From: Bacteroidota bacterium
GTDB taxonomy: Bacteria; Bacteroidota; Bacteroidia; Bacteroidales; JABHKC01
Direction: 5' to 3'
Assembly: GCA_018692315.1 (NCBI GenBank)
Contig: JABHKC010000186.1
Span: 1 to 42,128, forward strand
DNA length: 42,128 nucleotides
Shown here: piece by piece, positions 130-24,780 of the stretch
Layout: the number at the start of each line of letters is the position of its first letter
Position numbering within the stretch: position 1 is the stretch's first letter
The notes under the pieces: generated by a model
What the model saw: only the letters and a program-made list of their open reading frames with translations
Databases searched by the model: none
What the model was told of the DNA's origin: nothing
Position numbers and translations under genes: made by a program

Positions 130-185
130 GGAAACTTCAGGCAATATTTGTATCGTAATACTGTCTAAAATTATGTAGTGCAATC

Positions 186-386
186 TTATTTATTTTCATC
201 TTTTACAGTGTTTTCAATTTCTTTATCAATTGTTTGTTGAATATAATGATTGCCTTTTCTAAGTTTTTTTACTTTTTCGGCATCAATTAGCTTTTCCAAA
301 GATTTATAGTCAATTTCGTTTTCATAACAAAGTTGCATTAAATCTTCATCAAGCTGCTTTTTTACTTTTTTTATATTATGGCTCAT
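186..386 (-). CDS. Small charged helical protein, possible DNA-modification-system-associated small protein
   Basis: This 66-residue protein is rich in Lys, Glu and Asp, has no signal peptide or membrane segment, and looks helical throughout (LMQLCYENEIDYKSLEKLI, then a basic KLRKG turn). Its ATG at 386 lies two bases after the TAA of the 655-aa HARE-HTH protein, so the two are almost certainly translated from one message. From memory it resembles the short proteins annotated as DNA modification system-associated small proteins (core around an LxxlcxenxvdxxxlekLi pattern); this is an unverified resemblance. It is the last gene before a convergent gene, so no further partner is encoded downstream. 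Confidence 0.6.
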   Translation of the reverse strand: MSHNIKKVKKQLDEDLMQLCYENEIDYKSLEKLIDAEKVKKLRKGNHYIQQTIDKEIENTVKDENK

Positions 387-388
387 AA

Positions 389-2356
389 TTATATAGTTAA
401 TGAATTATTTTCTAATTTTAAATATTTCATTTCAATCTGAAATTCAATAAGTTTGTATACTATTCTTTCCTCTATTTCATACTTTTCTGAAAAATATTTT
501 ACAATGTCATTTGTTGGTATATCAGAGTTTTTTCTGAGAAATGATTTTAAACTTTTCCCAAAAAATTTAGGGATATTATAAAATTGCAGATAATCCACTG
601 TTTCAGCATTTTTAATTAATCCAATATATGACTGATTTAGAATAAGAAAAGTATCTGTCTTATCAATTTGAATATTTCTATAAATACTATTAAATTCTGT
701 ATCTCGATATTTTTTCACATGTTTTTCAATATCTAAAATATGAATTGGTTCAGTTGAATTCTGTAATAATTCCATGACCATATTTTTTATCGTGCCTCCT
801 TTAATATCTGAATATTTTTCTTCCCAGATTTTCAAACCGTAAGTACTTGTACGTCCAAAGCAAATAAACCCTTTATCCTTTTGCATTGAAGCCCTTACGC
901 TATCTTGACTGCATTCATAATTAGGGTATTTTTCTGCAATTTTTTGGAATATTACTTTAACAGATACAGGTTCTTGAATTTCTTTCAAAATTTCATATGC
1001 ATATTCATGAACTGATTTATGAATATTCTTTTGAAATATAATATTTTCTTCTAGATCAAGAATTAATTCAAATTCATCAAATAATAATTGATCACAAACT
1101 ATTGTAATTTCTTCAAGATGGGAGTAATCTTTTGGTTTGTAAAATTTCAGTAAATAGCCTTGGAAATTAAAAGAATAGGAATTAATAATACGGTCATTAT
1201 GTCTATTGAAAATATCATTTGTGAATTTTTCAAAATCAAAAATTGAGGTTAGTTTTTTTGATATCAGATACGTAGTTTTCCATTCATGAACAAACCGTCT
1301 TTTAGAACCAAATAATAAATCCTGTTCATATCCAATTATTTCATGTGTTTGACTGAAAAAAATTGAAATGATTTTGGTTATAAATAGTTTATTAAATTTA
1401 TTATTTTCATTTTTATTGATACTATCAACAATTTCGTTTTTGACAGAAATTAAATCTGTATCTGTATTTATATTGTAAATAGAATTAAAATCAATCTCAA
1501 AAATCAATATAAACTTTAAAGTTGTATTTAATTTCCTATATATTGTATTCCTAATCTGCCTTATTCTTTCTGTAGTTAATCCAATAAAAGATGCAATTGT
1601 ACTTAAGTTATTGTGCTTAAAATCAATGAAAAAATTAAAAGTATATTTAAAAATGATAAGCTCCCGTTTTGCAAAAATTTGCTCATTATTTAATAGTTGT
1701 ATGATTAAGCTAAATATTCTTATTTCCTTGTCATTGTAAAAGATATTACTTAGTTTATGAAGTTCAATATTCGGAAAATATATATTCAATTGAGAATAGT
1801 AATATTCTATTTGTAAATCATTTTCATTTTCAAATAAGCATACTAAATTGATATATTCAAGAATATCTGCTTTGAATTGATTTAATTCTTGGACAGATTT
1901 TCCTCCAATGTTGCGTATTCTTTCAAACTTAAAGTTTTTAATCGCAATAATGTAGTGATATACATTATTAACTGTAAATGTTTGATTTAATAACTTTTCC
2001 AAGACATTGTATGAGCTAACTGATAAATTGTTTACACATGATTTAACAAATGAATTAATTATTGTTCTTTGACGTAAATTTAAGTTGTCTATGATTTCTT
2101 TTAACTCGTTCTTTGTTTCTTCTTGTTTATCAATTATTAAGTGATTTTTGTATTTCAAACAAATGTCTAATAATTCATTATTTGTTTTATTCCCACAATT
2201 TCTAAGTTTTTTAAAATCACCATTTTCTTTGTAATGAAGAAGAATTTTTTTCAATGTTTTTAGTCCATTATATTTTAAAGTATTTAAAGCTCTTACAGTT
2301 GTTCCTTCAATATCTGCTAATTCAATAAGACTAATATTTTTTATTACTTCGTTCAT
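389..2356 (-). CDS. Chimeric DNA-binding protein: two alpha-CTD-like, sigma region 4-like and two HARE-HTH modules
   Basis: The protein has 655 residues and no signal peptide. Residues about 10-65 follow the RNA polymerase alpha C-terminal domain pattern (VRALNTLKYNGLKTL, then a helix-hairpin-helix LRNCGNKTNNELL). A second similar unit is at about 110-170 (IRNIGGKSVQELNQF). Residues about 248-276 match sigma-70 region 4 (LSTIASFIGLTTERIRQIR). Residues about 447-512 and 520-583 are two HARE-HTH-like winged helices (the Pfam HARE-HTH fold also seen in the RNA polymerase delta subunit and restriction enzymes), each ending in an FxxxG...YGL/YIGL strand. No nuclease, methylase or ATPase motif is visible. 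It is the promoter-proximal gene of a two-gene unit. The inferred role is transcription control or recognition of modified DNA; the substrate is unknown. Confidence 0.8.
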   Translation of the reverse strand: MNEVIKNISLIELADIEGTTVRALNTLKYNGLKTLKKILLHYKENGDFKKLRNCGNKTNNELLDICLKYKNHLIIDKQEETKNELKEIIDNLNLRQRTIINSFVKSCVNNLSVSSYNVLEKLLNQTFTVNNVYHYIIAIKNFKFERIRNIGGKSVQELNQFKADILEYINLVCLFENENDLQIEYYYSQLNIYFPNIELHKLSNIFYNDKEIRIFSLIIQLLNNEQIFAKRELIIFKYTFNFFIDFKHNNLSTIASFIGLTTERIRQIRNTIYRKLNTTLKFILIFEIDFNSIYNINTDTDLISVKNEIVDSINKNENNKFNKLFITKIISIFFSQTHEIIGYEQDLLFGSKRRFVHEWKTTYLISKKLTSIFDFEKFTNDIFNRHNDRIINSYSFNFQGYLLKFYKPKDYSHLEEITIVCDQLLFDEFELILDLEENIIFQKNIHKSVHEYAYEILKEIQEPVSVKVIFQKIAEKYPNYECSQDSVRASMQKDKGFICFGRTSTYGLKIWEEKYSDIKGGTIKNMVMELLQNSTEPIHILDIEKHVKKYRDTEFNSIYRNIQIDKTDTFLILNQSYIGLIKNAETVDYLQFYNIPKFFGKSLKSFLRKNSDIPTNDIVKYFSEKYEIEERIVYKLIEFQIEMKYLKLENNSLTI

Positions 2357-3200: not shown

Positions 3201-6200
3201 TCACTCTTCAAAATCAACAGTAATTGAACCCTGATTGCTCATTTTAATTTGGTAGCCTTCGCCGGGTTTCATCAAACCAATATAATTTAGTGAAAACTGT
3301 GGCCAATAGACCATACCTAATTCATTTTTCACTAGAATAATATTAGAAACAACAGGATTGAGTATTAATTCCATTTCTTTGTCTTCTTTCGCAGGAAAAC
3401 CAATAAAGCTCCACCCTGCATCCAAATCTATAATGGTTTGTAGGTGTGGAAAGCTTTGTACCGATAATGTTTTCTGAGATGTAAGTTTTATTTGATAACC
3501 TTCTGCTAAGGATACATTTCCTATGTTATTAATATTATATAAAGGCCAGCAAATTTCGCCATCAGAGTCTTTTACAATTGTTACCCAGTTTTGTATTTCG
3601 TTGACAAGCTCTAAAATATTTGAATTTTCAGGCATAATATTTATTGAGAAGATATTCCATCCTTGTTTTAAAACAATTTCTTGCGCGAGGTGCACACCAC
3701 AGATAAGATTAATTGTTTCTCCAGTGCTATAGCTTATTGGATTTGTTTCAGGAATAAGTTCTCCTAAACTGTCTTCTGATAATAAATATGACTGCTGCCA
3801 ACTGAGCAAACTCCCCTCACCCTGACTGTAGTTTATTGAAGCAACACTATCCGGCATATTTAAATGAATAGAAACATCTCCGGATTGCATATAAGGAAGG
3901 TCGATAAAAGAAATTCCATCATGAATGGTCTGGGCAAAACCAATACTTGAAATTACAGCAAAAGAGCTGTCCGTAAATAAAGTTTCTAATGTGTCAATCA
4001 TGCCGTTAGCATTGTTATCTCCCATAATACTAACATAAATTCCCGGCATTTCTATTCCTTCAAAATTTTGTATAATATCGCTATTTACATAATTATGAAC
4101 AGAATATTCAGGATTGAAATAATATGCTACTGCCTGAGGTATTAATGTAATTGTATCTGCAAAATCAACACTTATTGTATAATATCCGTTCGAATCAACA
4201 GACTGACCATTAATGGATGCATTTGGTACAGGGTCTCCTGCCAAATCCAAAACTGAACCGGATATTACGCATGACGCTTGCGATGTACCTAAAAATGTAA
4301 TTGTCTGATTGCTTGTAACATTTATTAAAGAACTTACCGGTGGCACAAAGGAAAATCCAATTGCAAGTGGTGTCAATGTAATGTTATCTCCGTATTCTAC
4401 TGAAACTGAATAATTTCCATTTATGTCAACAAACTGACCATTTACCGATGAATTTGGAATAGGATTGCCACTGGTGTCTAAAACTGCGGCAGTTACTATA
4501 TTTGATAGTTGTGGAGTTCCAACAAAAAATTGATCATGATTACTTGTTACATTCAAAAATGTTACAGAATCAGGATAAAAACTATAACCAATACAATGAG
4601 GAATTACAGTAATATTGTTTCCAACAAAAACACTTATTGAAAAATTACCGGTGTTTGTAACTGTTTGTCCGTTTACAGTTGCATTAGTAATAAGATTTCC
4701 GTAGTCATCAATTAGAGTTCCTGTAATTAAATAAGTCTGAACAATGCCAACAAAATCCTGTACCTGATTGCTTGTTAAATTTGTATAGGAAGCCGAAGCC
4801 GGTGTGAAATAATATCCCGACAAAAATGGGATTACATCTAAATTATTTCCATAATTGACTTGTATTAAATAATTTCCGTTCGAATCAACAGTTTGTCCAT
4901 TTATCTCAACATTTGTTAAGGGTAATCCTGAAATATCAGTAACAGAGCCTGAAACTTCTATGATAGGAATTGGAGCACCTATGAAGTTTTGAATCTGGTT
5001 ATTTATTATATTAGTTAAAGTTACAAATGAAGGTGTAAACTCGTAACCAAGCATAAATGGATCAAAGGTTGCAGTACTCCCATAATTTACCTGTATAAGA
5101 TAATTTCCATTTGAATCCACAGGGTTTCCGCTTACCATAGCATTGGCGAGAGGATTTCCAATTGTATCAATAACTTCACCTGAAATGTCCATTATAGGTA
5201 CAGGATTTCCTGTAAAGTCTTGTGTGATTGAACTTGTAACATTAGTGAAAGTAACGAAAGGCGGAGAAAAACTAAATCCCAGAGCGTAAGGTAACAAAAT
5301 AATATTATCACCAAAATTGACAAATTCTGAATAGCCACCGGCAGTATCTACTGGTTGATTGTTAATAACAGCATTTGTAATTGGAACATTGTTAGAGTCT
5401 TTTGCAGTACCTTGCACTAAAATGGGAAATTGAGCAAGAGCTGTAAAGGATTGTGTTTGATTGCTGGTTACATTATTAAAAACTGCAGCAGATGGAACAA
5501 ATGCATATCCAATAGCCTGAGGTAAAATAATTATATTATCGCCATAACCAACTGTTATCAAATAATTTCCGTTTGCAAATACTGAGTTACTATATGCAAT
5601 ACCATTGACTGAATAATTGACTATTGCATTTGGTATAGGAAATCCGTTATTATCCATAACTATTCCTGAAATTGAATAAGACTGAATTGTGCCTGTAAAA
5701 TCATATGTCTGATTACTTGTTACATTAGTTAATATCATTGCAAAGGGATTGAAAATGTATCCTACAGCTTGTGGAACTATGTTCAAATTGTCTCCATAAA
5801 TGCAAGATATTGAGTAATTCCCATTTGTATCGAGAGTTTGCCCAAGTAATGATGCATTTGGAATGGGATTTCCAAAATTGTCTAATACAGTCCCTGAAAT
5901 AATTACATCCGGCATTGGTAGTCCGATAAAATCCTGAGTTTGATTGCTTAGAATAAGACTGAAAGCTATAGTATCAGGTGAGAATGTGTAGCCAATAGCT
6001 TGAGGGGAAATACTGATGTTGCTGCCACATGCGACACTTATTGAGTAATATCCGTTATTATCAACAAAAAATCCATTAACAGTTGCGTTGGTTATTGGGA
6101 TTCCATTCGTATCTAAAACAGTTCCTGTAATGTTACAAGATCCTGTATAAGCAATAAAGTCCTGATTAGATATGTTTCCCGACAAGGGTGTTGTAATGCT

Positions 6201-9200
6201 GATAGGACCATCAAAAGTATAGTTTTGCCCGCTTGTTTGATAAGAGGCACTTAATGTTCCTGTCCAACCACTCGGAATTGCTATGTAATAAGTTCCATCA
6301 GCATAAGTTGTAGCAGTATTATATCCACTTGCAGTGATAGACACACCTCCTAATCCAGCTCCAGTAGAGCTTCCAATTGTAACAATTCCTGTAATTAAAA
6401 ATAATGAAGCGCTTGGTGTATGGATTGCCAGATAATCCTGATTTATTTTGTTTTCGTCTAAATTACTGTATATCCTTTGATTTGGAATAAAGAGGTAGTC
6501 TTGTTTGAAGGGCTCAATTATTCCGCTCCAGCCTTTCATCTTATCAAATTCGTAATAACCTAAGGAATCGGTCATTGCAAGAGTTAGACTATCATGCATT
6601 ATTTCAACATCGATAACACCAACATCCTGGCTATTAGCAACATATCCGCTGATTCTAAAACTTGAATACGGAACTTTATTATTTAAGCTATGAACATTAG
6701 TTGATGGTAAAGGATATATTTGAATATTACATGCAGAGCCAAAACTATTCGGACTGCTTATTTCAATTAAATTATCAGCTTTGTCAACTGTATATATTTT
6801 TTCGTTTGGTCCCATTTCTAAAGGAGTGTCCATTATAAAAGTCGAAACATAAACATTTGCTATTGACATACTTAAAGAATTCATAAGGTCTATTTGCTTA
6901 ATAAAACCATTGTAACAATAATATAGGAATTCCCCATTTGGAGAAAACTCAAGGCCTCTTTTAGTTTTAACAAATATTGTATTGGGAACTAAGGTATAGT
7001 TTGTTATTGAACCACTGGTGTCGTCAAAATCAAATAACTCAACTCCTGCTTCATAAACTGTTTGTGCCAGCTTACTTCCATCAGGGGAAATTGCCAGAGC
7101 ACCCAATGAAAATAGTCCAAAATTATTACTCTGATATCCTCCTATGTTTATTGCTTGCGAATTTGTATCTACGCCATTTTCATCAAGTAAATAAACTAAA
7201 AATGTATTCCCTATCATAGAGTGAGATATTATCCAAAAGTCCTTACCATTTCCATGCAATACTGCTATCATTTTTTCTGCAGCAATACTGTTTAATTCAA
7301 TATTTTCAAAATTCGGATCAACAGCACCCAGACCACCATTTAGATTCATGTCAATAATAGTGTAACTTGTTCCCAAACCATTGTTTGCATAACAATCATC
7401 AACATTGAAAACAAAATATTTTCCATGATTTTGATTATAACCATTTACAAATTTAGAAGGTTGTGGCAACATCAGACTTCCTTGAGCCGCACTTTCACCT
7501 CCCATAAAAAAGAGCGAAGGATTTATAGTATGATGTCGGTTCCAGACTTTACTTCCATTAGTGTATAAAAGTAAATTACCATCAAAATTTGAAATTGATG
7601 AAGTACCTTCGCCATAATATCCATTGTGTAGATCTACAGAACCTTGTGTAGTAGTAAACGTTCCACTATTATTGTCAAATGATAAAACTCCATCTTTTTT
7701 GAAATACCAATGATTATTTTCTTTTCCGGAAAGATTTTGATATTCGGCTTCAGTTATAACATGAATATATGAAGATTTCGAAACTGTTGCTGAATTTGTT
7801 TGTGTTTGTGTTTGATTTGTAACAGTCAGTGAAACATCATAATAACCTGTTTGAAGGTAAATTACTGCAGGATTTGAAAAAGTTGATGTACTGCTTAATG
7901 AATTCGGAAAGCTCCATTGATAATCGGATAAAGTTCCGCTTTCCGCTTTGGCTGCAAAGGTAGCAGGATGACCAATAACTATGGTTTGAAAATTTGATGA
8001 AAAATCAACATTTGAAGTTATAGCATTGCTTTGCAGCATTAAAAATATCTGTAACAAATCTATTCTGCCACTGCCCAGATTTCCAGCATAGGACAAACTG
8101 TTTAATGGATAGATATCAAAACTGTTGTTTTCTAATAGTAGTTCAATTTGATAAGGTTGAAGTTCAGGTGCATAAGAAGAAATTAATGCAACAGCACTGG
8201 CTACGAGAGGAGATGCCATAGAAGTTCCGTTTAGAATTGCATATGAATTATTGTTGACAGGTACAGTACTTAAAATTAAAACACCAGGAGCCATGATATC
8301 TATAGTAGGTCCATAATTCGAAAAAGTTGCTTTAATATCGGAAGAATTAGTTGCTCCAACACTTATAACATAATTATAACTTGCAGGATACGCAGGAGTT
8401 GTTAGTCCATCATTTCCGGCTGCTGCTATAAGTTTTATTCCTAAATAATGCGCTACAGTCATTAGACTTTGATTAGTTTGCGAATAACCATATCCACCCC
8501 ATGACATATTTATGACATCTGCACCAGCAGCAATTGCATAAGCAACACCTTCATAAGCTGCCTGTAGGCTTGAACCTGTGCTTTGGTCAGTTTTAGTTTT
8601 AACAGCCATAATCTTCACATTATTTTGCCCAGCTCCTGCAATGGAGGCTATTCCTGTATTATTGTTTGATGTAGCACCGGCAATTCCGGCTACATGTGTT
8701 CCGTGCATGAAAAAGCTATTTGTAGCATTTATTGGAGGATTTGGATTGTTATCGAAATTGGCAAGGTCATAACCATTAATATCGTCTATAAATCCATTAG
8801 AATCGTCATCTATATTATTGTTTGGAATTTCGCCCGGGTTTGTCCAGATATTCTCTGTCAGGTCCTGATGGTCAATTTTTACAGCATCATCTACAATTGC
8901 AATTACGACTTCAGCATTGTTAGAATTTGCATTGTAAATGTTCCATGCAAAGGATGAGTTGACTTGATTTAAATGCCATTGTTGAATATACTGAGGATCA
9001 TTTGGAGTATAAAAAGACTCGACTTCTGGAACTCTTTCTGCATAAACTACATAAGGCAAAGCACTCAAGTCTTTTATTATTTCTTCCGGGCTACTATTGC
9101 TATTACACTGAATGGTAAATATATTTTTCAACTTATTAGAATGCCCATTTATTTTTGGATTATTCAATTCTGTTAATGCTTTAAACATTCTTTTTACATT

Positions 9201-9551
9201 TGCATTATTAACTTTATGTCTATCCGCAAATGTTCTAAGCTCAGGGTTGACTGAAAACAAATCTGAGTTTTCTACAAAGTTAAAAAGCGAGATTTGCTTG
9301 AACTTTACATAGAATTTCCCTTTAATATAATCTTCTTCATTGATATTTAGATAGTTTTCAAAACCTTGAAAATTAGATTCATAAGCTTCCCGAATTTTCA
9401 CTTTTGCCGAAGTATCTTTTTGGCTTAAAAAAGTTTCCTGTTCAAATTTAGCAGTTTTTTCATGAAAAGATGTCCCAAAAACATAGTTTGAGAAATGAAA
9501 AACAGTTAAGATAATCGAACCTATTACAATTTTGGATAGTCTATTTCTCAT
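3201..9551 (-). CDS. Giant secreted subtilisin-like (S8) serine protease with propeller, PKD and carboxypeptidase-regulatory-like repeats
   Basis: I start at the ATG at 9551, which opens a good Sec signal (MRNRLSKIVIGSIILTVF); the in-frame ATG at 9686 lies upstream of the predicted transcription start. This gives about 2116 residues. Order: an I9-like propeptide region (about 80-195); the S8 domain with Asp in IVDDAVKIDH (about 222), His in HGTHVAG (about 284) and Ser in NGTSMASP (about 444); a PKD-like domain; a beta-propeller of the type found in gliding-associated Bacteroidota proteins (NNHWYF, GNLLLYTNGSKVWNRHH); about eleven carboxypeptidase-regulatory-like repeats; and a final pair of GW...GYQIKM modules. 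All three catalytic residues are present, so it should be active. No standard T9SS type A sorting domain follows the last module, unlike its relatives here. It is divergent from the 9874-12501 gene. Confidence 0.9.
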   Translation of the reverse strand: MRNRLSKIVIGSIILTVFHFSNYVFGTSFHEKTAKFEQETFLSQKDTSAKVKIREAYESNFQGFENYLNINEEDYIKGKFYVKFKQISLFNFVENSDLFSVNPELRTFADRHKVNNANVKRMFKALTELNNPKINGHSNKLKNIFTIQCNSNSSPEEIIKDLSALPYVVYAERVPEVESFYTPNDPQYIQQWHLNQVNSSFAWNIYNANSNNAEVVIAIVDDAVKIDHQDLTENIWTNPGEIPNNNIDDDSNGFIDDINGYDLANFDNNPNPPINATNSFFMHGTHVAGIAGATSNNNTGIASIAGAGQNNVKIMAVKTKTDQSTGSSLQAAYEGVAYAIAAGADVINMSWGGYGYSQTNQSLMTVAHYLGIKLIAAAGNDGLTTPAYPASYNYVISVGATNSSDIKATFSNYGPTIDIMAPGVLILSTVPVNNNSYAILNGTSMASPLVASAVALISSYAPELQPYQIELLLENNSFDIYPLNSLSYAGNLGSGRIDLLQIFLMLQSNAITSNVDFSSNFQTIVIGHPATFAAKAESGTLSDYQWSFPNSLSSTSTFSNPAVIYLQTGYYDVSLTVTNQTQTQTNSATVSKSSYIHVITEAEYQNLSGKENNHWYFKKDGVLSFDNNSGTFTTTQGSVDLHNGYYGEGTSSISNFDGNLLLYTNGSKVWNRHHTINPSLFFMGGESAAQGSLMLPQPSKFVNGYNQNHGKYFVFNVDDCYANNGLGTSYTIIDMNLNGGLGAVDPNFENIELNSIAAEKMIAVLHGNGKDFWIISHSMIGNTFLVYLLDENGVDTNSQAINIGGYQSNNFGLFSLGALAISPDGSKLAQTVYEAGVELFDFDDTSGSITNYTLVPNTIFVKTKRGLEFSPNGEFLYYCYNGFIKQIDLMNSLSMSIANVYVSTFIMDTPLEMGPNEKIYTVDKADNLIEISSPNSFGSACNIQIYPLPSTNVHSLNNKVPYSSFRISGYVANSQDVGVIDVEIMHDSLTLAMTDSLGYYEFDKMKGWSGIIEPFKQDYLFIPNQRIYSNLDENKINQDYLAIHTPSASLFLITGIVTIGSSTGAGLGGVSITASGYNTATTYADGTYYIAIPSGWTGTLSASYQTSGQNYTFDGPISITTPLSGNISNQDFIAYTGSCNITGTVLDTNGIPITNATVNGFFVDNNGYYSISVACGSNISISPQAIGYTFSPDTIAFSLILSNQTQDFIGLPMPDVIISGTVLDNFGNPIPNASLLGQTLDTNGNYSISCIYGDNLNIVPQAVGYIFNPFAMILTNVTSNQTYDFTGTIQSYSISGIVMDNNGFPIPNAIVNYSVNGIAYSNSVFANGNYLITVGYGDNIIILPQAIGYAFVPSAAVFNNVTSNQTQSFTALAQFPILVQGTAKDSNNVPITNAVINNQPVDTAGGYSEFVNFGDNIILLPYALGFSFSPPFVTFTNVTSSITQDFTGNPVPIMDISGEVIDTIGNPLANAMVSGNPVDSNGNYLIQVNYGSTATFDPFMLGYEFTPSFVTLTNIINNQIQNFIGAPIPIIEVSGSVTDISGLPLTNVEINGQTVDSNGNYLIQVNYGNNLDVIPFLSGYYFTPASASYTNLTSNQVQDFVGIVQTYLITGTLIDDYGNLITNATVNGQTVTNTGNFSISVFVGNNITVIPHCIGYSFYPDSVTFLNVTSNHDQFFVGTPQLSNIVTAAVLDTSGNPIPNSSVNGQFVDINGNYSVSVEYGDNITLTPLAIGFSFVPPVSSLINVTSNQTITFLGTSQASCVISGSVLDLAGDPVPNASINGQSVDSNGYYTISVDFADTITLIPQAVAYYFNPEYSVHNYVNSDIIQNFEGIEMPGIYVSIMGDNNANGMIDTLETLFTDSSFAVISSIGFAQTIHDGISFIDLPYMQSGDVSIHLNMPDSVASINYSQGEGSLLSWQQSYLLSEDSLGELIPETNPISYSTGETINLICGVHLAQEIVLKQGWNIFSINIMPENSNILELVNEIQNWVTIVKDSDGEICWPLYNINNIGNVSLAEGYQIKLTSQKTLSVQSFPHLQTIIDLDAGWSFIGFPAKEDKEMELILNPVVSNIILVKNELGMVYWPQFSLNYIGLMKPGEGYQIKMSNQGSITVDFEE
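4044..6140 (-). repeat. Nine ~77-residue carboxypeptidase-regulatory-like tandem repeats
   Basis: Nine units of about 231 bases sit inside the protease gene. Each encodes an ISGxVxDxxGxPIxNAxVNGxxVDxNGxY core followed by a GYxFxPxxxxxTNVTSNQxQxF tail. Two more divergent units lie just upstream. The DNA copies have diverged, so this is an old array. The family is a transthyretin-like beta-sandwich used as a stalk or spacer in surface proteins. Confidence 0.8.
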
Positions 9552-9673
9552 ATTATCATATATTTTACAATTAATAATATTGAATAAGTTTAGTTCAGAA
9601 TTTGAAAAATTTAGTTCAAATTTATATAAACCCAAACTTTGTAATTCATTCTCATTTTCTGAAACAAAAAAAT

Positions 9674-9704
9674 CAAATATAAACATTTCTTGACATATGA
9701 CAAA
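9674..9704 (-). promoter_or_regulatory. Promoter for the S8 protease gene
   Basis: Reading leftward, TTTG (9704-9701), a 19-base spacer and TATATTTG (9681-9674) match the Bacteroidota -33/-7 consensus at every fixed position. Transcription would start near 9667, downstream of the ATG at 9686 and about 116 bases before the ATG at 9551; this supports the shorter protein. Confidence 0.55.
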
Positions 9705-9873
9705 ATAATATTGCGATTAGTCTAATCAAATTCAAAATATTTATGAAATAATTATCTCAAGGCTTAAGACAACGAAATCATCATAGCATTTGTCAGATGT
9801 TTAAAGTACTTTTTGAAAGAAAATAAACTTAAAGTTTAATGTTTTGAATAAATATGAACTAAATTATCAAATT

Positions 9874-12501
9874 ATGGAAAAGAAATCTTATAAAAAAACA
9901 GTCAAAATAGCAATATGCCTAATTATTGTATTGATTTTAATAAATATTCAGGGCTTTTCGCAAAATCCTGTGATTTGGGCACCTTCTGGCACCGAACAAA
10001 TTGCTACAACATATAGTAATCAAAATATTGATCCTGATCCAATATTCATTTTTTGTGCAGAAGCCAGTGAAGACTCAATTGGCGAACTTTATGTTACAGG
10101 TGGTTATTATAATTGTACTTACACATGGGGATGTTATGATATAGACCCAACATCACCAACTTATAACCAATTTGTTACAATTCAGGATTGGGCGAGTGGA
10201 TTTACTGACAATATAAGCAATTTGCCCAGTGGTCTATATCAGGTTATTGTGAATTGTGGAGGAAATACAACCTGCGCAAGAGCACATGTTTTTGTAAATG
10301 AATCTATAGTCGAATTTGATGCAATTGCAGCGGGTTGCGACACATTTTCTATTAATGGAGCTCATATAGATGCAGTTGATGATTTTACAATTTATGAACC
10401 ACCTCCGAATCCTTTTATTGTGGATTCTCTTACAGAAATAAAAGTTTGTTTCTCTGCAAACCATACTTATGTTTCCGATTTGGGATTTTATCTCGTAGCG
10501 CCCGATGGAGTAACTACCGTTGAACTTCTTCCTTCTATTGCAGCGTGGAACAACAGTACAACTCTTGATGCTTCACAAGTTCTTTTGTGCAACTCAAACG
10601 AAGTAAATACTAACTGCAATAGTGGAAACAATGTTGACGAATTTTGTTTTTCTACAGGACCAATCAATAATGGTTTACCAACATTAATTGCTGGCAATCC
10701 CAATCAAACAGCCTGCATTTGTAATATGTCAACACCACTTAGCGGAACATTTGCATCTGCCGGACCATGGTCGCCACTTTGGTTAGATGGTTCGTTCAAT
10801 GCAGCTGACGATAGTTGGGCAGTACAAATTTATGACTGTATTGGTGCTGATGTTGGATTTTTTAGCGAAGTTTCAATTACTTTCAAAGGTCAATCGGATT
10901 GTGGACTAACAACAATCGACTACGATTCAGGGCCAATAAATTCTACGATTAACGATAATTCTTGCGATCCGGCAACAGCTTCGATTTATGTTGTTCCCTT
11001 AAAATCAACAAGTAGTTACGCACTTCACGATTCTGTTACTGCAACATGGTCGTGTTCGCCGGTCAATTGGGACCCTGCATGGGGAAGTCAGGATTTTAAT
11101 ACAAATCCATCGCCACACATAAATCCAGAACCATCAGTATCAACAACTTTTAGTTTGACAATTGCAGATCATCTTTACGATACTCTTGGGAATGAAATTA
11201 CAGCTTACACTCCTTGTAATCCTTCAGTAACAAACACATACATTACACTGCCTACAGATGCAAGCATCTTATCATTCCCATCTGAAGTTTGCAAAACTGA
11301 TCCTCCTGTTCTGTTAATTCCTGCATATTATGGTGGAGTATGGGAGGTAATTGGTTCAAATGCCTGCAATTCTTGTCTTGCTGGTGGCGGATATTTTTTT
11401 CCTTCGCAAGCCAATATAGGAACTAACGAAATTTGCTATTCGTTCGGAGGCATTTGTCCAAGCGAATCATGCATAATAATAGATGTATTAGATACTCCAA
11501 CAGCAAATGCAGGACTCGACCAACAAATATGTGGCGAAACTGTTCAACTAATGGCAGACACAATGCAAAATTATTTTGGAGTAGGTGCATGGAATGCATC
11601 TGTTGCAGTAAATTGGGCAGCAAGCAATAATATTCCGAACCCAACTGTAAGCATTTCTGATTTCTTAACAAATGCAAATAATAATCCAATAAATACTTAT
11701 GTTGTTTTCACTTGGACAATAACAAATGGACCTTGTAGCCATTCCGATGATGTAAGTGTTACTTTCAAACCAATTCCGACAGCTTTCGCCGGAAATGATA
11801 CTTCAGTTTGTGGTTTAACAGTCGATTTAAATGCTATTTATAGTCTTGGAGGTCCCCCAGCAAGCTATGGAAATTGGACGAGTTTAGGATATTTTGGAGG
11901 AAGTTCTAATAATGATCCTAATGCTTCATTAACTGTTTATAATTATGGTCAATATACTTTTATTTGGAGAGAGAACAATGAAGAATGTTTCGATCAGGAT
12001 TATGTAACTATTGAATTCCTTCAAAATCCACCAATTCCTACAATAACTCATAGTGGAGATTCCTTGATAACTTTGGAAGGATATATCTGCAATTGGTATT
12101 TAAATGGAAACTTATTGCCTGAGATCGGACATAAAATCTTAGCTCTTGCTTCAGGCGAATATTTTGTTGAAATAATAAATGAGAATGGATGCTCATCCGT
12201 TTCAAATCTATATGAAATCATAGTAGTTGGAATTGAAAATGAAAATTTCTCCAAACATTTCAAAATTTATCCAAATCCAAATAATGGTAATTTTTTTGTT
12301 GAAATCAAAAATACCAATTCTTCAAACATAGACGTCAAAATTCATAATGTACTTGGCGAAATTGTTTATTTTGAACAAGTTTCTTCATTAGTCAATAATT
12401 ATAAAAACAGTATTAATTTATGCGAAAATCTAAAAGGTGTATATTTTGTTACAGTAAAAACAGAAGAGAATGTTTTTGTTAGGCGGTTGGTTTTGCAATA
12501 G
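9874..12501 (+). CDS. Secreted P-domain protein with T9SS type A sorting domain
   Basis: I chose the ATG at 9874 because it opens a Sec signal (KKTVKIAICLIIVLILINI, then GFSQ); the in-frame TTG at 9844 only adds ten residues. The product has 875 residues. Residues about 185-340 look like a proprotein-convertase P domain (HTYVSDLGFYLVAPDG, ending VSITFKGQ). The middle has Cys-rich immunoglobulin-like segments typical of Bacteroidota adhesins (NAGLDQQICGETVQL, FAGNDTSVCGLTVDL). The last 85 residues are a T9SS type A C-terminal domain (FKIYPNPNNGNFFVEI ... LKGVYFVTVKTEENVFVRRLVL), so the protein should be exported across the outer membrane and released or surface-anchored. No catalytic domain is visible. 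P domains usually accompany proteases, and the divergent neighbour is one, but a functional link is only inference. Confidence 0.88.
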   Translation: MEKKSYKKTVKIAICLIIVLILINIQGFSQNPVIWAPSGTEQIATTYSNQNIDPDPIFIFCAEASEDSIGELYVTGGYYNCTYTWGCYDIDPTSPTYNQFVTIQDWASGFTDNISNLPSGLYQVIVNCGGNTTCARAHVFVNESIVEFDAIAAGCDTFSINGAHIDAVDDFTIYEPPPNPFIVDSLTEIKVCFSANHTYVSDLGFYLVAPDGVTTVELLPSIAAWNNSTTLDASQVLLCNSNEVNTNCNSGNNVDEFCFSTGPINNGLPTLIAGNPNQTACICNMSTPLSGTFASAGPWSPLWLDGSFNAADDSWAVQIYDCIGADVGFFSEVSITFKGQSDCGLTTIDYDSGPINSTINDNSCDPATASIYVVPLKSTSSYALHDSVTATWSCSPVNWDPAWGSQDFNTNPSPHINPEPSVSTTFSLTIADHLYDTLGNEITAYTPCNPSVTNTYITLPTDASILSFPSEVCKTDPPVLLIPAYYGGVWEVIGSNACNSCLAGGGYFFPSQANIGTNEICYSFGGICPSESCIIIDVLDTPTANAGLDQQICGETVQLMADTMQNYFGVGAWNASVAVNWAASNNIPNPTVSISDFLTNANNNPINTYVVFTWTITNGPCSHSDDVSVTFKPIPTAFAGNDTSVCGLTVDLNAIYSLGGPPASYGNWTSLGYFGGSSNNDPNASLTVYNYGQYTFIWRENNEECFDQDYVTIEFLQNPPIPTITHSGDSLITLEGYICNWYLNGNLLPEIGHKILALASGEYFVEIINENGCSSVSNLYEIIVVGIENENFSKHFKIYPNPNNGNFFVEIKNTNSSNIDVKIHNVLGEIVYFEQVSSLVNNYKNSINLCENLKGVYFVTVKTEENVFVRRLVLQ

Positions 12502-22003: not shown

Positions 22004-23557
22004 TTAGTCCTCATTTACCTGATGAACAACATCAATTACAGTCCCATCAACCCATTTTATTGCAGCAATAATTTTATCGTTTAATACTGGTTTGGCAGCT
22101 TTTCCACAAATTCGTTCTGCTTCTTCTTTCAATTCCTGAATGGTTTTTATTGGCAAATTGGAATTTTTCGATTTTTCAATCAAATCTTTTCTAAGCGGAT
22201 TTATTGCAATTCCTCGTTCTGTTACAATAACATCAATTAATTCACCTGGCCCACATATGGTAGTTACTTCGTCCATAATAACAGGAATTCTATCTCTGAA
22301 AAGAGGAATTGGCAGAATTACTGTTTTTGAGAATAGGCAATTTTGCCATCCACCAATTCCGTGTAACATATAACCATCGGAATGAGTTACAACATTTGCA
22401 TTGAAATTTACATCCACTTCTGTTGCACCGAGAACCACAACATCAACTTTCCCTGCAAAGTTTCCTTTTCCATGATAATTGTAACTGGTAAAAGGGCTTG
22501 TCCAGACATGGTTCGAGTTTTCCGCCATTGAGCGAACACCTTCTAAATCAAATGTTTGACCATCTAAAATATAATCAAGCAGTCCTTCTTCAAGCATTTT
22601 TACAAGGTATTTATTGCTACCTCCTCTGGCAAATCGCGCTTTGATATTTTTGGCAATCATAATTTCACGGAAATATTCACCCACAGCAAGAGAAGTCCCT
22701 CCTGCCCCACTCTGAAATGAGAAACCATTTTTGATTATTCCTAGCTCGTCGCAAAATTTTGCAGTCATTTCGGCAAGTAGCAATCTGTCAGGACTTTTTG
22801 TAATAACTGTTGTTCCTGAAACTATTTTTTCCGGTATTCCAACTTTATCAACTTTTACAGTATAGTCAACATAATTTCCCTGTATTTGCCATGGAATGCA
22901 CGGAAATTCAACAAGATTGTCGGTAACCACAACAACTTTGTCGGCATATTGCGAATCGGCCAGAGCAAATCCAAGTAGTCCGCTTGTACTTTTTCCGTAA
23001 AGCCCATTTGCATTACCAAAATTATCGGCACTACCTGCAACAAGTACTGCAATATCAATTTTTACATCGCCGTCCTGCACAGCCTGATATCTTCCGCCAT
23101 GCGAACGCAAAACTGCTGTCCCTTTCATTTTTCCCTGCGAGGCAAAACGCCCGAGAGCACCGTTCATACTGCCTTCAATTCTGTTTATTGTTCCATCTTT
23201 GAGATATTTTATTAGATCCGAATGACAAGGAAAACTTGCAGACGGAAACCATCTCAAATTTTTAATACCTAATTCGTGGGCTATATCAAATACCTGATTT
23301 GCAATAAGGTCGCCATTTCTAAAATGATGATGTGTAGAAATTGTCATTCCATCGCACAAACCAGATTTAATGAGAGCCTCTTTTAGTGTATCAACCAGTT
23401 TATTTCCATCGTTTGGGAAATTGGCGCAGGTCGAAATTTTTGGTGCATGTATTTTTGCTTCAGGAATATATTTTCCAACTCCCTGAAAAGGTACAACTTT
23501 TTCGCCATTAACTTCAGTAGGAACTAATCTGCCTACACTATTTTTAACTAAGTTCAT
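22004..23557 (-). CDS. citF: Citrate lyase alpha subunit (citrate:acyl-carrier-protein transferase)
   Basis: It exchanges the acetyl group on the acyl-carrier subunit for citrate, the first half of citrate cleavage to acetate and oxaloacetate. I start at ATG 23557 (MNLVKNSVGRLVPTEVNGEK), giving 517 residues, the usual CitF length; the longer frame to 23611 would overlap the upstream gene. Family segments include STHHHFRNGD, FPSASFPCHSDL, LRSHGGRYQAVQDGD, FSFQSGAGGTSLAV and VVTHSDGYMLHGIGGWQN. It follows the fused citD-citE gene after 38 bases, which contain a duplicated 14-base unit. Ligase (CitC) and prosthetic-group genes (CitX, CitG) are not in this window. Confidence 0.95.
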   Translation of the reverse strand: MNLVKNSVGRLVPTEVNGEKVVPFQGVGKYIPEAKIHAPKISTCANFPNDGNKLVDTLKEALIKSGLCDGMTISTHHHFRNGDLIANQVFDIAHELGIKNLRWFPSASFPCHSDLIKYLKDGTINRIEGSMNGALGRFASQGKMKGTAVLRSHGGRYQAVQDGDVKIDIAVLVAGSADNFGNANGLYGKSTSGLLGFALADSQYADKVVVVTDNLVEFPCIPWQIQGNYVDYTVKVDKVGIPEKIVSGTTVITKSPDRLLLAEMTAKFCDELGIIKNGFSFQSGAGGTSLAVGEYFREIMIAKNIKARFARGGSNKYLVKMLEEGLLDYILDGQTFDLEGVRSMAENSNHVWTSPFTSYNYHGKGNFAGKVDVVVLGATEVDVNFNANVVTHSDGYMLHGIGGWQNCLFSKTVILPIPLFRDRIPVIMDEVTTICGPGELIDVIVTERGIAINPLRKDLIEKSKNSNLPIKTIQELKEEAERICGKAAKPVLNDKIIAAIKWVDGTVIDVVHQVNED

Positions 23558-23565
23558 TTTATTTA

Positions 23566-23593
23566 AATTTGTAAACTGTAATTTGTAAACTGT
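23566..23593. repeat. 14-bp tandem duplication between citDE and citF
   Basis: The unit AATTTGTAAACTGT occurs twice head to tail (23566-23579 and 23580-23593) and fills most of the gap between the two citrate lyase genes, just upstream of the citF start. It could change spacing and coupling of the two frames. Similar AT-rich short repeats are common in intergenic DNA of this group. Confidence 0.7.
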
Positions 23594-23595
23594 AA

Positions 23596-24780
23596 TTATT
23601 CCTGATTCCAATTTTTAGCTATTAAACCAAGATTTATAGCAAGATTTATAGTTTTTTCGGCTCTCTTAACTACCGGTGGATCAATCATTTTTGTTCCGAG
23701 CGATACAACACCAAGTCCTTTTTTTTCGGCATCAATAAATGCAGCAACAATCCTTTTTGCTTTTACAATTTCATCGGCTTCAGGTGCAAAACTTTCGTGA
23801 ATGATGGAAATCTGACGAGGGTGAATACAACCCATACCTTCGAATCCTAAAGATTTTGAAACTCTTACGTTTTCTCGAAGACCTTCCATATCGCCCACAT
23901 CCGAGTAAACAGAATCAATTGCTTGAATTCCTGCAGCCTTACTCGCATTTACAATTCGGGTTCTTGCATATAAAGATTCGTCTCCTGCTTTTGTGCGTTT
24001 GGTGCCAAGGTCTGCGGTCAGGTCTTCTAAACCTATGGCTAATGCTACAATATTTTTTGAAGCAGTGGCAATTTCGAAGGCTTTTTCTACACCGAGAGCA
24101 CTTTCAATAATTGGCATAAAATACACTTCTTTGTTCAGCAACTTTTCTTCGCATTTGCGCATATAGTCGGCACTTTCGCATTTTGGCACTAGAATGCAAT
24201 TTACATTGTTTTTTACAATTGTATCAATTTCTGATAAACCGGCCTCACCCTGATTGATGCGTACCATACGTTCGGCACCATAGAAATTAACTTGGCGTAA
24301 AGCATTTCGTACTAAAAATCGTGCTTCGGCTTTTTTCAATGGAGCAACAGAATCTTCAAGATCAAGGATAATTCCATTTGGATTGTGAATTCCGGCATTT
24401 ATCATCATGCTTGGCGAATTTCCGGGCAGATACAATCTCGAAAATCTGAATTGGTCTTTTTTCGATTTTGCTTCATTCTCAGGAATCATTTCCAAAAGGT
24501 ACTCTTTCTCCGTTTCAATCAATTGTTTTACAGCCGCTTCTACTCGGGCAGCAATTACAAATGGTAAGGCACCTGTATCTTCAACAGTAAGCAAAGCATT
24601 TTCTATTTCAAAGTACTTTAGAATATCTTTACACAATTGAATTATCGAATCTCCAAAAAGAACCTTTACTTTACTTTTTAGATCGATTTTTATGCCTCCC
24701 GAATTTTTCAATTCCAGACTAACAAAACAATCCGAACGAACCTTTTCGCCTTTGTTTCCTGCACTTGCAATTCTATTCAT
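23596..24780 (-). CDS. citE: Citrate lyase acyl-carrier / beta subunit fusion (CitD-CitE)
   Basis: The product has 394 residues, about 100 more than a normal CitE. Residues about 1-88 follow CitD: an ASAG start, a SD site suited to the phosphoribosyl-dephospho-CoA group (RSDC, near residue 16), VKVLFGDSI, and DTGALPFVIAARVEAA. Residues about 110-390 are the HpcH/HpaI-type beta subunit that splits citryl-carrier to acetyl-carrier plus oxaloacetate: RLYLPGNSPSMM, LDLEDSVAPLKKAEAR, MPIIESALGV, IGLEDLTADLG, GCIHPRQI. The fusion would tie the swinging arm to the lyase in fixed ratio. It is first in a unit with citF and has its own promoter. Which Ser is modified is inferred, because this N-terminus diverges from the enterobacterial one. 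Confidence 0.9.
   Translation of the reverse strand: MNRIASAGNKGEKVRSDCFVSLELKNSGGIKIDLKSKVKVLFGDSIIQLCKDILKYFEIENALLTVEDTGALPFVIAARVEAAVKQLIETEKEYLLEMIPENEAKSKKDQFRFSRLYLPGNSPSMMINAGIHNPNGIILDLEDSVAPLKKAEARFLVRNALRQVNFYGAERMVRINQGEAGLSEIDTIVKNNVNCILVPKCESADYMRKCEEKLLNKEVYFMPIIESALGVEKAFEIATASKNIVALAIGLEDLTADLGTKRTKAGDESLYARTRIVNASKAAGIQAIDSVYSDVGDMEGLRENVRVSKSLGFEGMGCIHPRQISIIHESFAPEADEIVKAKRIVAAFIDAEKKGLGVVSLGTKMIDPPVVKRAEKTINLAINLGLIAKNWNQE

What the first reader, a model, noticed from the sequence alone, without database searches (positions are those of the whole stretch)
186..2356. Orphan two-gene unit: chimera of three RNA-polymerase-type DNA-binding modules plus a 66-aa partner
Seen: one polypeptide joins two alpha-CTD-like helix-hairpin-helix units, a sigma region 4-like helix-turn-helix and two HARE-HTH units, and a 66-aa gene follows after two bases. 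Known: HARE-HTH occurs in the RNA polymerase delta subunit and in restriction or modification contexts. Inference: it senses modified DNA or redirects polymerase as the regulator of a modification or defence system whose other parts are absent or elsewhere. The convergent gene at 1-129 shows no more partners lie downstream.
Basis: partly seen in the sequence, partly recalled or inferred. Interest (0 to 1): 0.65.

Follow-up and report, generated by a model that had tools for sequence, protein, structure and literature searches.

The report
Dnd-like operon lacking its sulfur enzyme
The two genes are the front half of a four-gene bacterial DNA-scanning cassette, probably for defence, related to the system that puts sulfur into DNA but lacking the sulfur-inserting enzyme, and here cut in two by a jumping element at the end of the contig.

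Summary
The two genes are real but not an orphan unit. The window is one whole contig (C186). Bases 1-140 are the end of a dispersed insertion element, and the small gene overlaps the first 20 or so codons of a dndD gene which that element interrupts. The rest of dndD, followed by a dndE-HerA/FtsK fusion gene, lies at the end of contig C205; both sides carry the same 9-bp duplication. The four-gene operon (A-B-dndD-dndEH) occurs in 30 of 37 named loci, nearly all Bacteroidota. A, the 655-aa protein, has two alpha-CTD-like units, a sigma-region-4-like unit (both largely keeping DNA-reading residues), a middle domain of unclear fold, and winged helices; its C-terminal module differs between relatives. 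B, the 66-aa protein, is homologous to the C-terminal tail of DndC; published work places E. coli DndC's DndD-binding surface near its C-terminus. DndC is missing from 29 of 30 public genomes with the cassette; three loci have A followed by full DndC. Best reading: a Dnd-derived complex without phosphorothioation, A supplying DNA recognition and B sitting in DndC's dock on DndD. Defence is inferred; the effector step is unknown.

The parts
389..2356 (-). gene A: 655-aa DNA-binding protein (two alpha-CTD-like units, sigma-region-4-like unit, middle domain, three winged helices)
   Evidence: ORF; Pfam; profile search against PDB; AF2 model; relatives
2147..2338 (-). A residues 7-70: alpha-CTD-like unit 1; equivalents of alpha R265, N268, G296, K298, E302 kept (S299 is T)
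   Evidence: Pfam 25.0 bits; VIA 7vpd_S Z 7.8, 57 aligned, 26% identity; residue counts (residue roles and numbers recalled)
1838..2107 (-). A residues 84-173: alpha-CTD-like unit 2; the R265 equivalent is S in the window, R in 26 of the 27 rows with a letter there
   Evidence: alignment; model
1502..1717 (-). A residues 214-285: sigma-region-4-like helix-turn-helix; recognition helix (residues 261-267) at 1556-1576
   Evidence: E and two R of the helix in 29 of 29 operon A proteins aligned
1025..1507 (-). A residues 284-444: middle domain, confidently modelled, no clear fold match
   Evidence: AF2 pLDDT 87.7, pTM 0.83; best VIA Z 4.3, an extended winged helix; best Foldseek E 0.83
812..1024 (-). 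A residues 445-515: winged helix 1 (HARE / RNAP delta-like)
611..799 (-). A residues 520-582: winged helix 2
392..565 (-). A residues 598-655: winged helix 3, at the place where some relatives carry HA repeats or homing-endonuclease-associated repeats
186..386 (-). gene B: 66-aa protein, stand-alone homologue of the DndC C-terminal tail (PF20306 Sp-DndD type)
141..199 (-). 5' end of dndD (19 codons and two bases), overlapping gene B by 14 bases, cut by the insertion
   Evidence: continuation in L094 (contig C205)
141..149 (.). 9-bp target-site duplication, also present at the end of contig C205
1..140 (+). end of a dispersed insertion element (contains the 43-codon ORF 1-129); contig boundary
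   Evidence: 11 other places listed in the genome; the other end at C205 and nine other places listed; no Pfam match

Best explanation
The locus is the first half of an A-B-dndD-dndEH operon, a self-contained Dnd-derived DNA-scanning cassette that normally does no phosphorothioation. Shown by comparison: the four genes are contiguous, mostly overlap and diversify together, and B is homologous to the C-terminal tail of DndC. Published: in E. coli, a C-terminal region of DndC binds DndD. Inferred: B occupies DndC's docking site on DndD; A, in place of DndC's sequence-reading core, brings the DndD ABC ATPase and the DndE-HerA/FtsK motor to chosen DNA, using alpha-CTD and sigma-4 surfaces that read promoter-like DNA plus an exchangeable C-terminal DNA-binding module; the ATP-driven complex then loops or translocates the DNA and blocks or silences incoming genetic elements. 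No nuclease or modification enzyme was recognised in the proteins scanned, so the effector step is unknown. In this genome the system is probably off, because an insertion element splits dndD after about 20 codons.
For: Operon in 30 of 37 loci with a >=40% identical EH. In 27 of these 30 with four long gene models, A-B and B-D overlap in all and D-EH in 26 (longest-ORF starts); with the window added, A co-diversifies with the others (Mantel r 0.85-0.91, highest of 1000 permutations 0.46). B against DndC profile: E 2.2e-11 over 64 columns at the C-terminus; a DndC-tail profile finds 26 of 26 B, the B profile 11 of 14 DndC. Three loci have A followed by full DndC (L170, L171, L174). Published DndD-binding region of DndC and a mutant that breaks it (PMC12193691 section 2.3). 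DndC absent over the cut-off from 29 of 30 public A-B genomes. DNA-reading residues: E585, R586, R588 equivalents in 29 of 29, Q589 in 28 of 29. C-terminal module swaps. ATPase motifs kept: DndD Walker A 30 of 31; EH Walker A and DEAH 28 of 28 (EH over 450 aa only). No recurrent fifth gene in 30 loci: the widest neighbour family is in 4. Insertion.
Against: No experiment and no complex model: contact of A with B or DndD is inferred from gene order and co-diversification alone, which an operon regulator would also show. Neither tail profile finds E. coli DndC, so the mapping onto the published interface rests on one MAFFT alignment. The window's own genome does hold a DndC-DndD pair on another contig (C61), and G410 has DndC. 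In the window A and B do not overlap (two-base gap). Antiphage activity is inferred; the defence-gene neighbours had no control set. A nuclease in the unmatched middle domain is not excluded. The window's A differs at two positions mostly kept elsewhere (R584 equivalent T; unit-2 R265 equivalent S).
Confidence: 0.6

Rival explanations
1. A is only the transcriptional regulator of the operon (doing the job claimed for DndB in classical dnd), repressing or activating the A promoter with its sigma-4 and alpha-CTD surfaces, and is not part of the working complex.
For: A is the first gene, where regulators often sit; A homologues mostly stand alone in the genome (27 of 30 fetched same-order loci without DndD/EH in the held flank), 11 of 13 short forms next to ribosomal-protein genes (gene names by eye), which suits a transcription factor. 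The sigma-4 and alpha-CTD promoter-reading residues are largely kept.
Against: A is present in 33 of the 34 EH loci not cut by a contig end, overlaps B in the 27 loci measured, and keeps pace with B, D and EH in divergence. Its C-terminal module is swapped between relatives, odd for a regulator of one promoter. It also accompanies full DndC.
Confidence: 0.22
2. The system still makes phosphorothioate DNA, borrowing DndC from another locus or another sulfurtransferase, with B completing or competing with that DndC.
For: The window's genome has a DndC gene on contig C61 and G410 has one. In Aureimonas plasmid pAU20f a DndC without tail (379 aa) sits beside a 71-aa 'DNA modification system-associated small protein' and dndD, so a split DndC seems to exist.
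Against: 29 of 30 public A-B genomes have no DndC over the family cut-off. The 30 A-B operons hold no DndC within the sequence held. Rakesh et al. note that no close PP-loop enzyme could stand in for DndC (PMC10853773 section 24).
Confidence: 0.08
3. One reading: an orphan two-gene regulatory unit sensing modified DNA or redirecting polymerase.
For: The modules are there; in the assembly the contig stops 185 bases after the second gene.
Against: The dndD start, insertion-element end, target duplication and matching C205 end; the operon in 30 other loci.
Confidence: 0.03

Closest known systems
DndCDE(A) phosphorothioation systems with DndE fused to HerA/FtsK (the 'clade-3' HerA/FtsK of Rakesh, Aravind and Krishnan 2024, PMC10853773)
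   Same: DndD over the TIGR03185 cut-off in L056, L059 and the window's genome; DndE (PF08870 over cut-off) fused to a HerA/FtsK ATPase; EH proteins in one well-supported group with those of DndC-type systems (100/100)
   Different: The catalytic DndC is gone; only its tail is left as protein B. A large alpha-CTD / sigma-4 / winged-helix protein precedes it. No such protein came up in the sections and term passages of that paper that I saw; its supplement was not read
Small protein SP / PbeB-like / PF20306 Sp-DndD ('DNA modification system-associated small protein')
   Same: L056's B is over the PF20306 cut-off (34.6 against 27.2 bits), the window's B just under (24.5); B and SP-type small proteins align (hhalign E 4.8e-6, probability 86)
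   Different: The paper describes SP as rapidly evolving and mostly disordered, a possible negative regulator; here B aligns with the DndC tail (E 2.2e-11). Direct SP-DndC similarity is weak (E 0.0043, probability 8%). The helicase-like genes seen by eye in SP-type loci (L140, L142, L185-L187) are not in the A-B operon
DndFGH / DptFGH restriction (DndH HerA/FtsK)
   Same: EH matches the C-terminal HerA part of DndH (PADLOC E 6.9e-26 for L056) and solved DptH (7es4, E 1e-8 for the C205 EH)
   Different: No recurrent neighbour gene family that could be DndF or DndG in 30 loci; the N-terminal part is DndE, not the DndH nuclease region
PglW and BrxL of BREX (alpha-CTD-like plus winged helices; sigma-HTH)
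   Same: Use of alpha-CTD-like, sigma-HTH and winged-helix DNA-binding modules inside a defence protein (PMC12839542, passages only)
   Different: No kinase, AAA+ or Lon part; different system
MzaA, sigma-70-family protein of the MZA antiphage system
   Same: A sigma-4 stretch like that of the L056 A protein (NCBIfam E 9.3e-5, PADLOC E 0.0022)
   Different: Only about 50 residues match

Membership tests
Dnd phosphorothioation system (DndABCDE) | DndD ABC ATPase | tested here: met
   TIGR03185: 274.5 and 269.0 bits in L056 and L059, 266.5 on C205; cut-off 245.85
Dnd phosphorothioation system (DndABCDE) | DndE | tested here: met
   PF08870 37.9 bits (C205) and 46.4 (L056), cut-off 25; TIGR03184 under its cut-off (23.9 for L056 and 21.3 for L059 against 71.85)
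Dnd phosphorothioation system (DndABCDE) | DndC PP-loop sulfurtransferase | tested here: not met
   Absent from 30 of 30 A-B operons within the sequence held and, over cut-off, from 29 of 30 public A-B genomes; the window's genome has one elsewhere (C61)
Dnd phosphorothioation system (DndABCDE) | DndA / IscS sulfur donor | not tested
   Not searched
Dnd phosphorothioation system (DndABCDE) | Sulfur in the DNA backbone | not testable with these tools
   Needs chemistry
DndE-HerA/FtsK fusion group ('clade-3') | DndE and HerA/FtsK in one polypeptide next to a DndD-type ATPase | tested here: met
   placement in the paper's own clade-3 tree was not tested
CxC-ATPase / PbeABCD system | CxC zinc hook in the ABC ATPase | tested here: not met
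   No CxC in 31 of 31 A-B DndD sequences. The same simple search found none in the six SP-type ATPases either, so I do not call those CxC
CxC-ATPase / PbeABCD system | HKD-SF2 helicase gene | tested here: not met
   No recurrent extra gene family in 30 A-B loci; the helicase model itself was not searched
PF20306 Sp-DndD | Score over the curated cut-off | tested here: inconclusive
   Window B 24.5 bits (under 27.2); L056 B 34.6 (over)
Sigma-70 factor | Regions 2 and 3 besides region 4 | tested here: not met
   Only region 4 is matched significantly
HARE-HTH (PF05066) | Score over the curated cut-off | tested here: inconclusive
   Window 13.0 bits (cut-off 25.9); L167 26.9; fold like RNAP delta, Z 8.2, tied with other winged helices
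DndFGH | DndF and DndG present | tested here: inconclusive
   No recurrent extra gene family among neighbours in 30 loci; DndF and DndG models were not searched across the genomes

The most novel reading that the evidence does not exclude
A defence machine that neither modifies nor cuts DNA: A mimics the promoter-reading parts of RNA polymerase (sigma-4 for -35-like DNA, alpha-CTD for upstream DNA) to load a DndD / DndE-FtsK motor onto invaders' promoters and shut off their transcription or strip them from the cell. B would be a fossil of DndC kept only because it is the clamp that holds the recognition subunit on DndD.
Probability: 0.15. Interest if true: 0.88.

Novelty: new variant of a known kind. 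Interest (0 to 1): 0.64.

Why it matters
Rakesh et al. (PMC10853773, passages of section 12 and section 24) point out that many DndD-DndE systems lack DndC and might use another modification or mechanism. This cassette is a concrete and compact candidate, with cultured hosts (Flavobacterium daejeonense, Belliella aquatica, Filimonas zeae, Chryseobacterium sp. Leaf201 among the record titles). It names what stands in DndC's place, suggests a simple origin for at least some of the small proteins seen beside DndD (a detached DndC tail that docks on DndD), and makes that testable with pull-downs of the kind already done for E. coli DndC-DndD. It also explains why a two-gene 'orphan' appeared: an insertion element at a contig end.

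Tried and rejected
Viral, plasmid and phage collections with the window A: no relative. Another A (L161) in plasmids: only its HA repeats matched, in three actinobacterial records. L056 EH: none in plasmids at E<=1e-20; two weak hits in phage records, covering 65-67% of the query. The first genome-contig scan, with A, found nothing; the second, with an EH alignment, worked.

PADLOC has no model matching the window's A or B at E<=1. No solved DndC or DndD relative by sequence at E<=0.01. Foldseek on the whole A model gave only partial winged-helix or SelB-like hits; its two matches under 0.001 (UFL1/DDRGK1) have TM-score 0.13 over the query and I give them no weight. The middle domain matched nothing clearly, which does not exclude a known fold.

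Considered and dropped: A as a true sigma factor (no regions 2-3); A as nuclease (no model hit; open for the middle domain); the 1-129 ORF as a host gene. The transposase of the insertion element was not identified. A conserved operator upstream of A was not looked for. The order of gain and loss of DndC is not resolved: the DndC-side branch of the EH tree is weak (85/45).

Rows dropped before counts. Tree: of the 37 EH loci, L175-L177 were left out by name and L167, L179, L184 because their EH pieces are under 450 aa; only the nine DndC loci and three SP loci with full EH were used. Alignment A4 (29 A proteins): window plus 28 of 33 loci with A; left out were L157, L162, L183 (close copies), L179 (broken) and L174 (cut); its L181 row is only the 555-aa C-terminal piece. 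Alignment A5 (26 B): window plus 25 of 30 A-B loci. Among the 30 A-B loci, L148 is cut at the contig start, L179 has A and EH broken, L181 has A in two frames, L167 and L184 have short or split EH. Neighbour scan: 139 of the 146 proteins listed (28 loci; seven longer ones left out to stay within the residue limit); only the first 25 of 114 and 121 families are shown by the tool; no control set.

Corrections: an earlier count said '14/14 DndC match B profile'; that output was cut and the recount gives 11 of 14.
Full report
WHAT IS THERE. The window is the whole of contig C186 of a 4.98-Mb, 248-contig genome. The two genes are as described: A (389-2356, minus, 655 aa) and B (186-386, minus, 66 aa), two bases apart. 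A has a Pfam alpha-CTD match over the cut-off, and weak sigma-region-4 and HARE matches. A profile of 29 operon-borne A proteins finds solved sigma region 4 (best E 4.2e-6) and alpha-CTD structures (best E 2.1e-5). The AlphaFold2 model is confident (pLDDT 88.1; pTM 0.61, so domain placement is loose).

THE ORPHAN IS AN ARTEFACT. Bases 1-140 recur at 11 other listed places in the genome, all 11 at contig ends (40 of 42 candidates were scored). On the minus strand a frame opens at 199, overlapping B by 14 bases, and reads MKINKIALHNFRQYYDTNIA before it stops in the repeat; DndD proteins of the relatives begin alike. The genome's only DndD over the family cut-off ends 100 bases short of the end of contig C205. 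C205 ends with a second repeat end, listed at nine other places (40 of 72 candidates scored). Read from the junctions, the two element ends are imperfect inverted repeats (17 of the first 19 bases alike) and a 9-bp duplication flanks the element. Joining the flanks in a script gives an open frame of 695 codons, within the range of dndD in the A-B relatives (685-703 aa). Behind it on C205 lies a 532-aa DndE-HerA/FtsK fusion. So the contig break and the 'convergent gene' are an insertion element inside dndD. Its transposase was not identified.

THE OPERON ELSEWHERE. A scan of 84,980 species genomes with an alignment of three EH proteins gave 55 loci; 37 (L148-L184) have EH at 40% identity or more. 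Of these 37, 30 have A-B-dndD-dndEH (five with a cut, split or short gene: L148, L167, L179, L181, L184); three have A-full dndC-dndD-dndEH (L170, L171, L174, the last with A cut by the contig start); one has dndC with a broken dndD and no A found in the 1.7 kb held upstream (L172); three are cut by contig ends (L175-L177). L148 and L150 are the same contigs as L059 and L056. By record title the hosts are Bacteroidota of several families; the exceptions are a Desulfococcaceae genome (L167) and a MAG labelled Patescibacteria (L151), whose EH groups with that of Filimonas (support 91/56) and which may be misbinned. In the window's own order three of 393 genomes searched, its own included, hold an EH at 50% or more, so the cassette is sporadic. 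In the 27 loci with four long gene models, A-B and B-D overlap in all and D-EH in 26 (start codons as the longest ORF gives them); distances of A, B, D and EH, window included, go together (Mantel r 0.85-0.96; highest of 1000 permutations 0.46). The 28 A-B EH proteins in the tree, window included, form one side of a branch (92/97).

B IS A DndC TAIL. B profiles align to DndC columns 378-441 of 446 (E 2.2e-11, probability 97.3). A DndC-tail profile finds 26 of 26 B proteins (worst E 3.4e-5 at Z=1000); the B profile finds 11 of 14 DndC and two of six SP-type small proteins; neither finds E. coli DndC. L056's B hits the end of DndC models in NCBIfam and PADLOC (E 0.0007-0.0023) and is over the PF20306 Sp-DndD cut-off. 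Published work (PMC12193691, section 2.3 read, other passages) reports that E. coli B7A DndC 433-482 and its last helix contact DndD in an AlphaFold3 model and that L458D/E462A/R471A breaks binding in pull-downs. In an E. coli DndC of 544 aa (L203; the paper's has 540) residues 458, 462 and 471 are L, E and R, and they fall in the stretch that aligns with the Bacteroidota DndC tails (alignment only). In Aureimonas plasmid pAU20f a DndC without tail (379 aa) is followed by a separate small protein, dndD and an FtsK gene: it looks like a split DndC in nature, though that small protein matches the tail profile only weakly (E 0.0069).

NO DndC. Of 28 further A-B genomes, 27 have no DndC over the cut-off (one, G410, has; G417 has a hit far below the cut-off); G215 and G262 have none. 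That is 29 of 30 public A-B genomes. All four genomes with a DndC locus ring, as they should. Completeness of the 28 is not given by the tool; G215 is 95% and G262 79% complete. The window's own genome has a DndC-DndD pair on contig C61. So the usual state is a Dnd core without the sulfur enzyme, which Rakesh et al. suspected for DndC-less systems in general (PMC10853773, sections 14, 16, 17, 22, 24 read, others as passages).

WHAT A PROBABLY DOES. The residues that read DNA in sigma region 4 (E. coli R584, E585, R588, Q589) and in alpha-CTD (R265, N268, G296, K298, S299, E302) are named and numbered here from memory. In the 29 operon A proteins aligned the E585, R586 and R588 equivalents are invariant, Q589 is kept in 28, R584 is R in 20 and K in 7 (T in the window); alpha-CTD unit 1 keeps R265 in 24 of the 26 with a letter there but N268 in only 17 of 26, unit 2 keeps R265 in 26 of 27 (S in the window) and N268 in 27 of 27. 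The C-terminal end is exchangeable: a winged helix in the window, helicase-associated (HA) repeats matched in 13 of 29, homing-endonuclease-associated repeats in L167. Together this looks like a DNA-recognition subunit with a variable reading head. DndD keeps Walker A in 30 of 31; EH keeps Walker A and DEAH in 28 of 28 over 450 aa. No nuclease or modification domain was recognised in the 29 A proteins, the window's and L056's B, or the D and EH of C205 and L056, and no fifth gene family recurs in more than 4 of 30 loci. Neighbours, scanned without a control and with only the 25 commonest families shown, include phage integrases (4 of 139 proteins) and single CBASS cyclase, DRT reverse-transcriptase and DNA-methyltransferase proteins, as in defence islands.

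A'S WIDER FAMILY. Homologues of A occur in 35 of 393 same-order genomes at E<=1e-8. Of 30 loci fetched, 27 have no DndD or EH in the held flank (in one of them, L029, even A falls below the threshold), two are the operon, and one (L026) is a 349-aa protein of alpha-CTD units whose C-terminus is that of EH, a likely deletion relic of the operon (sequence). Short forms of about 490 aa with one alpha-CTD keep the sigma-4 residues in 13 of 13; 11 of these 13 lie directly after an rpsF-rpsR-rplI-rRNA-methyltransferase-like run (gene names by eye, one gene hidden by a longer wrong-strand ORF in L072 and in L073). So the Dnd cassette seems to have recruited a chromosomal DNA-binding protein.

VERDICT. 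The membership claim is firm: a DndD/DndE-HerA system with A, and with DndC reduced to a tail. The mechanism is inferred. I searched for prior descriptions in open-access full text and saw none of A or of the B-DndC-tail link in their listings or in the passages I opened; the supplements of PMC10853773 and subscription papers (including the 2020 ABC-ATPase survey and the 2012 HARE-HTH paper, both recalled and not held) were not read, so priority is not established.

Noticed in passing
L022-L024 and L068-L075 (same-order genomes): Short A homologues (about 490 aa, one alpha-CTD, sigma-4, winged helices) sit directly after a ribosomal-protein run (rpsF-rpsR-rplI and a SpoU-like methyltransferase by eye) in 11 of 13 short-form loci: a conserved chromosomal protein that looks like a promoter-reading factor of unknown function.
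   Followed up: partly
L026:6071-7120 (G016 contig C582): A 349-aa protein with three alpha-CTD-like units ending in the C-terminus of DndEH: likely relic of an internal deletion of the A-B-dndD-dndEH operon. By eye it lies next to a STAND-like ATPase and a DNA methyltransferase-like gene.
   Followed up: partly
L179 (Leeuwenhoekiella blandensis): Another copy of the operon with both A and EH broken, by eye through insertion elements.
   Followed up: no
L095 (contig C61 of the window's genome): A separate DndC-DndD pair, DndD cut by the contig end; the genome once held or still holds a second, DndC-type system.
   Followed up: partly
L205 (Aureimonas pAU20f, 5941-10905): DndC without its tail next to a 71-aa small protein, dndD and an FtsK gene: apparently a naturally split DndC, which may explain other annotated 'DNA modification system-associated small proteins'.
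   Followed up: partly
L140, L142, L185-L187: A second DndEH lineage with a 72-aa small protein (PF20306 over cut-off in the two scanned, L140 and L187) and, by eye, a helicase gene instead of DndC; its DndD-like ATPases show no CxC by simple pattern.
   Followed up: partly
window 22004-24780: Citrate lyase alpha (CitF) and beta-like genes; the beta-like protein carries an N-terminal ACP-like domain (CitD-CitE-like fusion).
   Followed up: no
window 3201-9686: 2161-aa subtilisin-like protein with a PKD domain and carboxypeptidase-regulatory-like repeats.
   Followed up: no
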